A DNA stretch of 64,000 bases from Candidatus Gastranaerophilales bacterium. GTDB taxonomy: Bacteria; Cyanobacteriota; Vampirovibrionia; Gastranaerophilales; Gastranaerophilaceae. The notes below the pieces were generated by a model. That model was not told the origin of the DNA. It saw only the letters and a program-made list of their open reading frames with translations, and did not search any database. The stretch covers positions 1-64,000 of the forward strand of contig CALUYB010000005.1 of the NCBI GenBank assembly GCA_944324905.1. The letters run 5' to 3'. Below are positions 24,495 through 29,259 of this stretch, one piece after another. The position numbers and the translations under genes are program-made. Positions within the stretch are counted from its first letter, which is position 1; every line of letters starts with the position of its first letter.

Positions 24495-25934
24495 ATGACT
24501 TCTAATTATAGCAAGTACGATATGTTTGCTGCGTATAGAAATCCAGACCGCATTAGTAATATGATTCAAAATAAAATTTCAAATATTGACGAAAATGAAT
24601 TTCTTTTTCCAAATGTCGATTATTCCCATGCGTACGATGATTTAATTGAAAAGTACTCCGATTTGTTTGATGGCAGCAGTAATTCTACTGAAGAAACCGA
24701 TGGTGACGGACAAAGCGTTGATGGAGAAAATAACAGCGAGGATACCGAAGGAACTGAAGGAGCTGTGGGTACTGAGGGAGCTGAAGAAGGCGGAACTGCT
24801 GAAGAAGAAACAATTGCAACTGAGGAGCAAATGGAAGAATTGCGAGAAGCTTATGAGCAAGTCGAAGATGAGCAAGGTTGGCTTGGTAAGGCTTGGAATG
24901 GTGTTAAAAATTTCTTTGGACACAGCAACGGTTCAGATGCAGTAGAGGATGTTTTAGATAAAGCGGAAAACGGCGAAGTATCGTACGAAGAAGCTGTTGA
25001 AAAATTAAATACATATTCTCAAAAACAAGGCTCATTTGTTGATACTTTTGCAAACGTGACATCAGGCTTAGCGGTTGCGCTTGGCGCTGTATTTTCACCG
25101 TTTAGCTTTGGTGCAACTTTAGCTATTGGTACAGCTGCAGGTGCTGCGATAAAAGTAGGTGTTAAGGCATCGGATAAAGCTACAAACGATGTCAAGGGGG
25201 ATTATAAATTAAAAGACTTTACAAAAGATGGTTTAACTGGCGCTGTTGGCTCTGCTGTTACTGTTGCAACGGCAGGTATTGGTAGTACTGGTATTAATTT
25301 AGCAAAAGAAGGTGGCAAAGTTGCAATTAAGCAGGTAGCTCTTGAAGGTGCAAAAGCAGGTGCTAAAGCAGGTGCAATAGATGGTGGCGTTATGGGTGCT
25401 ACAAATTATGTTGCAGATGCTGTATTTGATGGAGAAGAATTCAGTGTTGGTGGCTTAACTGGTGCCACGTTAACAGGTACTATAGGAGGTGCAGCAACCG
25501 GTGGTGTAGTTGGCGGTGTTGCATCGGGTCTAACTGCCCTTAAGGTCAATAAAAGTGCGGGTTCTTCAAAAGCTGCAAGTGAATTTTTTGAAGAAGCAAG
25601 TAATAAATCAACTGAGCAGGCTGCAGAAAATGCTACAAAGAAGGCTGGTGAGCAAACTATTAAAGATGCATCCAAGGAAACCACTGAGCAGGCTGCAGAA
25701 AATACCGTGCAAGAAAATATTTTAACAGGAAAACAAAGGAAAAAAGTTTATAATTCTAATGGCAAGGTAGCAAAAACGCAGGTGCAAAGAAATACTGTAT
25801 TAAAAAACAAAGTAAATAATAAAGAAATTTTAAATTTGCAAGATGCTTATAAGGCCGGTTTTGATGAGTCTGAAATTAGAGCGGCAGGTCTGTATAATAA
25901 GCTTGAAAAGGCAGGTACAATAGAAGGCTTATAG
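24495..25934 (+). CDS. Glycine-zipper, acidic-linker hypothetical protein (candidate exported)
   Basis: 479 residues. Head (1-55) with TSNYSKYDMF and VDYSHAYDDLIEKY; Glu/Thr/Gly-rich acidic linker (about 58-110); helical part (110-185); then an Ala/Gly-rich region from about 191 to 355 with GxxxG-type zippers (LAVALGAVF, FGATLAIGTAAGAA, GTIGGAATGGVVGG) that could insert in membranes; then a Lys/Glu-rich helical tail. There is no Sec signal peptide. AGGGAG stands 10 nt before the ATG; an in-frame GTG at 24486 is too close to it. Its head resembles that of the next gene. Function unknown; a secreted membrane-active protein is one possibility. Confidence 0.72.
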   Translation: MTSNYSKYDMFAAYRNPDRISNMIQNKISNIDENEFLFPNVDYSHAYDDLIEKYSDLFDGSSNSTEETDGDGQSVDGENNSEDTEGTEGAVGTEGAEEGGTAEEETIATEEQMEELREAYEQVEDEQGWLGKAWNGVKNFFGHSNGSDAVEDVLDKAENGEVSYEEAVEKLNTYSQKQGSFVDTFANVTSGLAVALGAVFSPFSFGATLAIGTAAGAAIKVGVKASDKATNDVKGDYKLKDFTKDGLTGAVGSAVTVATAGIGSTGINLAKEGGKVAIKQVALEGAKAGAKAGAIDGGVMGATNYVADAVFDGEEFSVGGLTGATLTGTIGGAATGGVVGGVASGLTALKVNKSAGSSKAASEFFEEASNKSTEQAAENATKKAGEQTIKDASKETTEQAAENTVQENILTGKQRKKVYNSNGKVAKTQVQRNTVLKNKVNNKEILNLQDAYKAGFDESEIRAAGLYNKLEKAGTIEGL

Positions 25935-25967: not shown

Positions 25968-26001
25968 AATACATCACTCAAAAATGAGTGGTGTATTTTT
26001 G
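25968..26001 (+). terminator. Rho-independent terminator after the glycine-zipper gene
   Basis: A 13-bp stem (AATACATCACTCA with TGAGTGGTGTATT, one G-T pair) with a short A loop is followed by TTTT. It ends the transcript of the gene at 24495-25934 before the annexin-repeat gene. Confidence 0.8.
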
Positions 26002-26127: not shown

Positions 26128-27177
26128 ATGTCATCAAATTACGGATTTACATCTTTTAATACCTATATTGACAAGGTAAACGAATCTACGGGTTCAAATG
26201 GGCAAAATAGTTTAATTGCATTGTCGCAAGACGATTCTAATGTAAGTATTTTTGGTAATTATTCAAATTCATTATCAAATTTAAATACTGATTATTCAAC
26301 TGCTTATGATAGCGTGTTTGATAACAATTCAAGCACTGCAAATAATAATTCTTCAGTGCAAAATTACATGTCTAATATAAATGCGTTTGCAGGTTACGAA
26401 AATGCTTCCTCTTTGTTTGATGGCATAGATTATTCTGCACCATATAATAAAGTTTTGGATAATTTCTTTGCTAGTATTTCAGAGGCTGATGAAACCGGCG
26501 AAGAAGATAATGTAGATGAAACTGAAGATGACGGAAACGTAGATGAAACCGGCGAAGAAGATAATGTAGATGAAACTGAAGATGACGGAAACGTAGATGA
26601 AACCGGCGAAGAAGCTGAGTCTGAGGTTGAGTATACCGAAGAAGAACAAATTGCTATATATAATGCAGTAGAAGATATACTTGACGCCAGCGTAAGAATG
26701 TCTGGTACAGATGAAAAATCTTTAGTGGATGTTTTATCTGATGAAAACTTATCACCCAAGCTTATGAAAGCAGTTCAAGAAGAACTAACAAATCAAGGTT
26801 ATGATATTTTTGACATAATAAGAAGTGAAACCTCAGGTTCTACTGAAGATGTTCTTGAAGGTTATGCACTTGCAAAATTGGGTGGTAAATCAAAAGAAAC
26901 CAAAACAAAGTTAGAATCATATGAAAAATATGAAAATATGGACAAAGATTCTGTTGAGTACCAAAAATATATAAGAAATTGCATGAGTTTGTTCAGGCAA
27001 GCTGTAAATGGCCCAGGAACAGATGAAAAAGTTTTAACTTATATCATGAGTTTACCTGAGGATATTCGCTCAGATGTTGAAGACAAGTATAACGAAAAGT
27101 ATTCAGACGAGCGCGATTTTATGCAAAGAGGCAAAGATGAAACAGGAGGTTTAATACATACCGAATTTTATAAATAA
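26128..27177 (+). CDS. Annexin-repeat protein with acidic tandem-repeat linker
   Basis: 349 residues. Head (1-115) is Ser/Asn-rich and carries IDYSAPYNKVLDNFF, like the head of the previous gene. An acidic linker (about 121-170) follows, then two annexin-like repeats. The first has GTDEKSLVDVL at 193-203 and, about 40 residues on, DIIRSETSGSTEDVL, matching the annexin GTDE...SELSG pattern. The second has GPGTDEKVL at 295-303 with D337/E338 as possible calcium ligands. Annexins bind Ca2+ and acidic phospholipids; bacterial members are known but rare. There is no Sec signal. The start follows AAGGAGAG; an upstream in-frame ATG lacks one. Confidence 0.78.
   Translation: MSSNYGFTSFNTYIDKVNESTGSNGQNSLIALSQDDSNVSIFGNYSNSLSNLNTDYSTAYDSVFDNNSSTANNNSSVQNYMSNINAFAGYENASSLFDGIDYSAPYNKVLDNFFASISEADETGEEDNVDETEDDGNVDETGEEDNVDETEDDGNVDETGEEAESEVEYTEEEQIAIYNAVEDILDASVRMSGTDEKSLVDVLSDENLSPKLMKAVQEELTNQGYDIFDIIRSETSGSTEDVLEGYALAKLGGKSKETKTKLESYEKYENMDKDSVEYQKYIRNCMSLFRQAVNGPGTDEKVLTYIMSLPEDIRSDVEDKYNEKYSDERDFMQRGKDETGGLIHTEFYK
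26488..26612 (+). repeat. 54-bp perfect tandem repeat inside the annexin-repeat gene
   Basis: 26488-26541 and 26542-26595 are identical 54-bp units, and 26596-26612 begins a third. Each encodes 18 acidic residues beginning DETGEEDNV. Identity at the DNA level points to recent expansion by slippage or recombination. The length of the linker is likely variable between strains. Confidence 0.92.
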
Positions 27178-29096: not shown

Positions 29097-29125
29097 TTGA
29101 CTGTAGGTTTTTTTTAATGTAAAGT
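29097..29125 (+). promoter_or_regulatory. Promoter of rplJ-rplL
   Basis: TTGACT (29097-29102), a 17-nt spacer, and TAAAGT (29120-29125). Transcription would start near 29132, the first base of the L10 leader. The remainder of the gap from 28954 is AT-rich without an ORF. Confidence 0.6.
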
Positions 29126-29130
29126 TGTTT

Positions 29131-29259
29131 TGTACCCAAGACAGTCGGTGCCTTGGCTTAATATCCGACCTAGGTAACAGAAAAGTTTAATATGCTCTTT
29201 TGTTATTGTTTTGCGTGTACATAGTCGCAAAACTTTTTAGTATTTGCGCATACCCTTTA
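29131..29259 (+). ncRNA. Ribosomal protein L10 leader
   Basis: ACCCAAGACAGTCGGTG...CTTAATATCCGACCTAGGT (29134-29174) has the form of the L10 leader: GTCGG pairs with CCGAC around a kink-turn-type motif with the conserved AAGACAG and CTTAATA parts. It is bound by the L10(L12)4 complex to repress rplJL. Farther on, GTTTTGCG (29208-29215) pairs with CGCAAAAC (29226-29233) before TTTTT, a likely attenuator hairpin. The rplJ ribosome site follows at about 29261. Confidence 0.82.

What the first reader, a model, noticed from the sequence alone, without database searches (positions are those of the whole stretch)
26128..27177. Annexin repeats in a bacterial accessory protein
Two segments read like annexin repeats: GTDEKSLVDVL followed about 40 residues on by RSETSGSTEDVL, and GPGTDEKVL with acidic residues about 40 on. 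The GxGTD plus distal acid spacing equals the type II calcium site. Annexins are chiefly eukaryotic; bacterial ones are rare. In a presumed gut lineage, an exported annexin-like protein could bind host or bacterial membranes in a calcium-dependent way.
Basis: partly seen in the sequence, partly recalled or inferred. Interest (0 to 1): 0.7.

Follow-up and report, generated by a model that had tools for sequence, protein, structure and literature searches.

The report
Two-repeat annexin in gut melainabacteria
A small-genome gut bacterium carries a genuine two-repeat annexin, a calcium-and-membrane-binding fold best known from animals and plants, next to a gene that shares its leader module, which makes it a handle on how annexins arose and what bacteria do with them.

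Summary
The ORF at 26128-27177 (349 aa) matches Pfam Annexin at 33.9 bits (cut-off 25). AlphaFold2 gives two five-helix repeats (pLDDT 92.8) whose best structural matches are annexins and giardins. Both repeats have a GTD loop and its distal acid. The core is under purifying selection (dN/dS 0.05).

The genome is a gut Candidatus Gastranaerophilales (Melainabacteria). The gene is kept in 11 of 15 genomes of the genus. Other annexins are scattered through the class (46 of 382 genomes), with one, two or four repeats; two four-repeat proteins read A-B-A-B, as if a pair had doubled. The 2014 census of bacterial annexins names no such bacteria.

Export is not shown: there is no Sec signal. New is the neighbour P0002, a Gly/Ala-rich helical protein: its leader profile hits only the annexin elsewhere in the genome, and one relative has annexin and P0002 domain in one chain. 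I read the pair as membrane-docking part plus membrane part; calcium dependence, delivery and target are inferred.

The parts
26128..27177 (+). P0001, 349 aa two-repeat annexin protein; start supported by an AAGGAGAG Shine-Dalgarno-like stretch just upstream (by eye)
26284..26352 (+). first, weak copy of the DYSxxYD leader module shared with P0002
   Evidence: 13.7 bits, E 0.09 in a whole-genome search
26341..26490 (+). second copy of the leader module shared with P0002
   Evidence: 20.7 bits, E 6e-4; 17.7 bits
26488..26614 (+). hypervariable acidic linker, 54-bp tandem repeat, 2.4 copies; TD/ID dipeptide runs or other, mostly acidic runs in relatives
26638..26880 (+). annexin repeat 1, helices A-E (residues about 171-251)
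26704..26712 (+). repeat 1 GTD loop (residues 193-195; first Gly of GxGTD is Met here)
   Evidence: invariant in 11 of 11 rows
26827..26829 (+). repeat 1 distal acid, Glu234 in RSETSG
   Evidence: invariant in 11 of 11 rows
26953..27168 (+). annexin repeat 2, helices A-E (residues about 276-347)
27010..27024 (+). repeat 2 GPGTD loop (residues 295-299)
27139..27141 (+). repeat 2 distal acid, Glu338 in GKDETGG
   Evidence: Glu in 9 of 11 rows, Lys in L012 and L013, which also lack GTD there
24495..25934 (+). P0002, 479 aa, Gly/Ala-rich helical neighbour protein
   Evidence: directly upstream in 6 of 8 other genus loci that have upstream DNA
24495..24683 (+). P0002 leader module (profile A5)
24816..25532 (+). 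P0002 central Gly/Ala-rich domain (profile A4)
   Evidence: 87 of 289 class genomes have a match
25968..25997 (+). 13-bp stem-loop between P0002 and P0001, possible terminator, so the two genes may be separate transcription units
   Evidence: -17.1 kcal/mol, z -4.23; not listed by the terminator scan

Best explanation
P0001 is a true annexin-repeat protein with one annexin dyad (two five-helix repeats, best matched to residues 113-266 of annexin A1) behind a long, Lys/Arg-poor, Ser/Thr/Asn/Gln-rich leader and an acidic spacer. Shown: fold, loops, conservation, selection. Inferred: the two GTD loops bind Ca2+ with the distal glutamates and dock the protein on acidic phospholipid head groups. 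Inferred from genetics: it works with its neighbour P0002, a Gly/Ala-rich helical protein that carries the same leader module; together they look like a split form of the annexin plus hydrophobic-domain proteins found as single chains elsewhere in the order, with annexin as docking part and P0002 as membrane-inserting part. Whether the pair acts outside the cell, and by what route it would leave, is open.
For: Profile and fold. Ca loops; over 88 distinct repeats of the class the distal position is acidic in all 79 repeats with both columns filled, and the loop (G, T/S, D/N) is intact in 63 of these 79. Selection: window against L046, dS 0.20, dN 0.010, ratio 0.053 over 181 codons. Partner: P0002-type gene directly upstream in 6 of 8 other loci with upstream DNA; the profile of its leader, searched against the whole genome, finds itself and P0001 only, and gives 16.6-22.7 bits in 6 of 9 P0001 orthologs against a best of 6.7 in 1000 shuffles. 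Fusion: L102 (1027 aa) holds an annexin repeat (46.6 bits) and both halves of the P0002 domain (24.7 bits).
Against: No binding data. No recognisable toxin or enzyme in P0001, and none shown in P0002. Elsewhere in the order the P0002 domain is mostly not next to an annexin (coordinates compared by eye). The P0002 domain model failed (pLDDT 36.8), so 'membrane-inserting' rests on composition and predicted helices. The fusion rests on one protein: the first test, 112 ORFs, gave only one weak hit. A stem-loop between the genes speaks against one operon. Species L053 and L054 keep P0001 without P0002.
Confidence: 0.5

Rival explanations
1. Intracellular annexin: P0001 stays in the bacterium and binds the inner face of its own membrane on Ca2+ entry (membrane repair, envelope or division scaffold), with P0002 as a membrane anchor.
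For: No Sec signal. Kept within the genus at one locus, upstream of a conserved small gene (a 'bifunctional nuclease' by recall, not tested), in 11 of 15 genomes. Purifying selection.
Against: Scattered presence across the class, hypervariable leader and linker, and annexin repeats placed in long multi-domain chains in relatives look more like an accessory trait.
Confidence: 0.25
2. Annexin fold used as a surface or secreted scaffold that binds Ca2+ mostly through the acidic linker, with membrane binding lost or secondary.
For: Acidic 54-bp tandem repeat and TD/ID runs in relatives; repeat 1 of 9 of 11 rows has an insert just before GTD, and the first Gly of GxGTD is lost in repeat 1 of the window.
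Against: GTDE and the distal Glu of repeat 1 are invariant in 11 of 11 rows, unexpected if only the linker mattered.
Confidence: 0.13
3. Recent transfer of a host or other eukaryotic annexin gene.
For: Annexins are chiefly eukaryotic; the host is an animal gut.
Against: GC near that of the window (0.333 against 0.345); core 53-98% identical across the genus but only 14-24% to animal annexins in the structural alignments, and less to plant annexins; two repeats, not four. Repeat trees group it with repeats of the same order, but no eukaryotic rows were in that tree.
Confidence: 0.04
4. Degenerate remnant or chance resemblance.
For: One relative (L046/G005) has the gene split by a frameshift.
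Against: Fold confidence, profile scores and dN/dS 0.053.
Confidence: 0.01

Closest known systems
Eukaryotic annexins (Pfam PF00191; annexin A1, A2, A4, A5; giardins)
   Same: Five-helix repeat, GxGTD-type loop between helices A and B, acid in the D/E turn, best structural matches.
   Different: Two repeats instead of four or eight; long linker between the repeats; first Gly of repeat 1 lost; long leader with no counterpart seen; no experimental Ca2+ or lipid data.
Bacterial annexins of the 2014 census (PMC3894181)
   Same: Sparse bacterial annexin-repeat proteins with one to five repeats and GxGTD loops, some beside other domains (read).
   Different: The census lists Bacteroidetes/Chlorobi, Gemmatimonadetes, Proteobacteria and Actinobacteria, no melainabacteria or cyanobacteria; it reports tetrads only as weak similarity, whereas L017 here has four repeats at 186.9 bits.
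Annexin-bearing polymorphic toxins delivered by PVC/extracellular injection systems (PMC3482391, PMC8213781)
   Same: Annexin as accessory membrane part beside other domains; passages read.
   Different: P0001 has no C-terminal enzyme. One tail-tube profile (PF06841) gave no hit in this genome, but the controls were silent too, so nothing follows.

Membership tests
Annexin family (Pfam PF00191) | Match to the family profile over the curated cut-off | tested here: met
   33.9 bits, cut-off 25. Per repeat, in the genome-wide search, 22.2 and 17.2 bits, each below it.
Annexin family (Pfam PF00191) | Repeat of about 70 residues folded as five helices | tested here: met
   Helices 4-22, 29-36, 43-55, 60-67, 70-84 and 109-127, 133-140, 144-157, 164-171, 174-180 of the core; Z 15.2, 3.8 A over 151 residues to annexin A1.
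Annexin family (Pfam PF00191) | Type II Ca2+ site: GxGTD loop plus acid about 38-42 residues on | tested here: met
   Sequence only. Repeat 2 GPGTD and Glu338; repeat 1 MSGTD (first Gly replaced) and Glu234. Metal binding itself not tested.
Annexin, eukaryotic sense | Core of four (or eight) repeats forming a disc | tested here: not met
   Two repeats. It is a two-repeat annexin-repeat protein, not a canonical annexin.
Annexin, eukaryotic sense | Ca2+-dependent binding to acidic phospholipid | not testable with these tools
   Needs protein and liposomes.
Polymorphic toxin / injected effector | Variable C-terminal enzymatic domain | tested here: not met
   P0001 ends with annexin repeat 2; no other Pfam or NCBIfam family over cut-off in P0001, and none in P0002.
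Polymorphic toxin / injected effector | Recognisable secretion route | tested here: inconclusive
   No Sec-type signal. The genome has a flagellar export set and a second, divergent FlhA/SctV-FliF-FliH-FliE set; no link to P0001 was shown.
P0002-domain family (A4), unnamed | Match of the P0002 central domain | tested here: met
   Met by P0002; family found in 87 of 289 class genomes. P0001 itself does not carry it, only the leader module.

The most novel reading that the evidence does not exclude
Gastranaerophilales hold a living series of annexin assembly (single repeats, dyads, A-B-A-B tetrads built by doubling of a dyad inside bacteria), and use these annexins as Ca2+-triggered docking devices of leaderless, possibly type III-exported effector complexes; P0001 plus P0002 is a two-piece version aimed at membranes outside the cell.
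Probability: 0.2. Interest if true: 0.85.

Novelty: new variant of a known kind. Interest (0 to 1): 0.6.

Why it matters
[quoted passage not shown] A bacterial order with one-, two- and four-repeat forms, including tetrads that look like doubled dyads, lets the postulated stepwise assembly be tested directly. A conserved partner gene also gives a first handle on what a bacterial annexin does, in a gut lineage close to animals.

Tried and rejected
Fusion of annexin with a P0002-like domain in the giant ORFs of family f8: looked convincing by eye, but profile comparison gave probability 17.5 and 8.1, and a wider profile of 30 sequences found nothing there. Dropped.

A short leader motif S[IVL]F, seen after the fact in annexin and P0002-domain proteins: on 20 proteins not looked at before it was in 7 of 20 (annexins 3 of 10, P0002-domain proteins 4 of 10), with no background rate measured. 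Not used.

Covariation of GTD loop and distal acid: not testable, because the acid is present in 79 of 79 repeats with both columns, also in the 16 with a broken loop. This also means that the acid's conservation is no proof of calcium binding. Nine of the 88 repeats were left out for gaps in these columns, among them repeat 2 of L054, whose loop reads GFN.

Fold of the P0002 domain: pLDDT 36.8, so no fold search was made with it.

Extracellular injection system: one profile (PF06841), nothing in this genome, but the 14 control genomes were silent too, so not informative. SctL profile: 13.3 bits, below cut-off. Phage records: no match to P0001.

RelA/SpoT-like C-termini of some P0002-domain proteins: below cut-off (24.7, 21.0, 16.8 bits against 27), kept as a lead only. 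GNAT-like and CheD/CNF-like ends of L083, L088 and L103 were seen by eye only and Pfam did not support them.

Papers: 'bacterial annexin' 5 papers; 'annexin' with 'melainabacteria' 4 and with 'gastranaerophilales' 8, the listed titles and abstracts being on host annexins or host-microbiota studies; with 'vampirovibrio' 0; 'prokaryotic annexin' 1; 'annexin domain' with 'bacterial effector' 1, irrelevant; 'annexin' with 'polymorphic toxin' 5; 'melainabacteria' with 'type iii secretion' 3, listing seen only; 'gastranaerophilales' with 'secretion system' 17, 15 listed. I found no report of annexins in this order in these searches; papers outside the held library were not seen.

Full report
What is there. 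The ORF 26128-27177 (+) encodes 349 residues. Pfam Annexin hits it at 33.9 bits (cut-off 25, E 3.3e-8, two stretches), and phmmer against PDB sequences puts annexin A4 first at E 1.4e-9. NCBIfam gives nothing. AlphaFold2 on residues 168-349 with ten homologs from public contigs (alignment A2) gives mean pLDDT 92.8 and pTM 0.88, with ten helices in two sets of five. Foldseek's best PDB match is annexin IV at E 1.1e-4. VIA-align gives Z 15.2 (3.8 A over 151 residues) to annexin A1 residues 113-266, which I take to be repeats II-III (repeat numbering recalled); all 50 rows shown are annexins, annexin fusions or giardins.

Calcium loops. Repeat 2 has GPGTD and Glu338, repeat 1 has MSGTD and Glu234; both spacings are 41 residues from the G of GTD (hand count). 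In the 11-row genus alignment GTDE and the acid of repeat 1 are invariant. In repeat 2, nine rows have GTD or GTN and Glu, and two near-identical rows (L012, L013) have GFNK and Lys there. In all rows but the window and its near twin (L004), repeat 1 has an insert of 5-6 residues just before GTD. Across 88 distinct repeats of the class, 79 have both columns; the acid is present in all 79, and the loop is intact in 63. So the acid is not informative about the loop, and calcium binding stays an inference.

Selection and origin. Window against L046 over the core: dS 0.20, dN 0.010, ratio 0.053; more distant pairs have high or saturated dS. GC of the gene (0.333) is near that of the window (0.345). 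No sign of recent arrival.

Organism. Titles of contigs that carry orthologs read Candidatus Gastranaerophilales and Candidatus Galligastranaerophilus intestinavium. The latter contig (27,938 bases) fits G008:C69, which is in the same genus as the window's genome. NCBI places the genus in Candidatus Melainabacteria.

Distribution. Full-protein search: 11 of 98 genomes, the window's own included; all 11 are among the 15 of its genus. Pfam Annexin at E <= 1e-4: 46 of 382 genomes of the class, 43 over the curated cut-off, and 13 of 386 in a phylum-wide draw, of which 12 are in this order and one (G442) outside the class. The window's own genome does not reach that E-value in this search (2.4e-4 at best), so these counts are low. 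A second family, f8, has annexin repeats in ORFs of up to 7401 aa.

Repeat number. Among ORFs detected with a profile of my own, 28 have two repeats, 24 one, 3 four and 1 three. These counts are not dereplicated by protein (L018 and L102 are one protein), and long ORFs are cut at locus ends. L017 has four repeats at 186.9 bits in Pfam and matches annexin VI at E 7.7e-38. In L029 repeats 2 and 4 are 78% identical and 1 and 3 55%, all other pairs 33-44%. In L016 repeats 1 and 3 are 79% and 2 and 4 68%, other pairs 53-66%. L017 does not show the A-B-A-B pattern. The tree of 63 repeats joins L029 2 with 4 (100/99) and 1 with 3 (99/89), and L016 2 with 4 and a repeat of a neighbouring protein (99/91); many other forks are unresolved, and no eukaryotic rows were included. 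The genus's own repeats form two separate clades (6 and 9 rows), so both repeats are older than the genus.

Leader, linker and neighbour. The first 120 residues have 2 Lys/Arg and 54 Ser/Thr/Asn/Gln, and no hydrophobic signal. The acidic linker is a 54-bp tandem repeat, replaced in relatives by other, mostly acidic runs. Upstream lies P0002 (24495-25934). Its ortholog is directly upstream in L046, L047, L048, L050, L051 and L055, absent in L053 and L054, and unknown in L049 and L052, whose contigs end. A profile of the P0002 leader (7 rows) searched over the whole genome found itself, then P0001 at 20.7 bits (E 6e-4) and again P0001 at 13.7 bits (E 0.09), nothing else at E up to 10. In P0001 orthologs it scores 16.6-22.7 bits in six (window, L046, L047, L048, L050, L055) and 6.0-7.3 in three (L051, L053, L054); the best of 1000 shuffles is 6.7; an N-terminal piece of L046, given apart, scored 7.6. 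The two species without P0002 are among the three without a clear module.

The P0002 central domain occurs in 87 of 289 class genomes at E <= 0.001, in open frames of 80 to 3066 aa among the rows listed, and twice in this genome (C5 and C13). In L102 one 1027-residue protein holds an annexin repeat (46.6 bits) and two pieces of the P0002 domain, at 560-619 and 766-949 (24.7 bits). In the preceding test of 112 ORFs from annexin loci this was the only protein hit (17.8 bits on the truncated ORF), with none in 112 reversed and 112 shuffled controls. L053 and L054 have another annexin gene about 2 kb beyond P0001: two repeats and a Gly/Ala-rich stretch in one ORF. A stem-loop lies between P0002 and P0001 (z -4.23), so they may be separate transcripts.

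Export. No Sec signal. The genome has a flagellar set fliP-fliQ-fliR-flhB-flhA over the NCBIfam cut-offs (L057) and a second set with FHIPEP (717 bits), FliH, YscJ_FliF and FliE (L056), whose FHIPEP falls below both the FlhA and the SctV cut-offs. FHIPEP proteins are in 57 of 58 relatives; some, such as G016 and G017, have a single match, of the second class. This is an available route, not evidence that P0001 uses it.

Verdict. Annexin identity is as good as shown. The calcium-dependent docking role is likely from the fold but untested. The partnership with P0002 is supported by adjacency, the shared leader and one fusion. Delivery to host or other cells is a hypothesis. Literature used: PMC3894181 (abstract and sections 4 parts 1-2, 10 and 11), and passages of PMC3482391, PMC8213781, PMC5877343, PMC12249911 and PMC10882027.

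Noticed in passing
L056 9354-15981 (own genome, contig C4): Second, divergent flagellar/type III-like gene set: FHIPEP below both FlhA and SctV cut-offs, FliH, YscJ_FliF with C-terminal domain, FliE, lytic transglycosylase. Relatives such as G016 and G017 have only this FHIPEP class.
   Followed up: partly
L016, L017, L029: Four-repeat annexins in melainabacteria, two of them with A-B-A-B repeat similarity.
   Followed up: partly
L020-L022, L031-L033, L039, L045 and others of family f8: Annexin repeats inside ORFs of about 1000 to 7401 aa, some with YD/RHS-like repeats by eye.
   Followed up: no
L067, L068, L070: P0002-domain proteins with a below-cut-off RelA/SpoT match behind the domain (24.7, 16.8 and 21.0 bits): possibly alarmone-synthetase-like effectors.
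   Followed up: no
L017, L023, L036: EF-hand-like stretches, all below Pfam cut-offs, ahead of the annexin repeats.
   Followed up: no
L046 6001-7046: Ortholog of P0001 in G005 is split by a frameshift near residue 63.
   Followed up: no
window 25900-25934: P0002 of the window ends about 125 residues earlier than its close ortholog in L046.
   Followed up: no
L058 3907-5349 (own genome, contig C1): 481-residue ORF matching only the C-terminal half of FHIPEP (157 bits), present as a further FHIPEP-like match in many relatives.
   Followed up: no
window 29117-29248: Ribosomal protein L10 leader, Rfam 61.4 bits.
   Followed up: no
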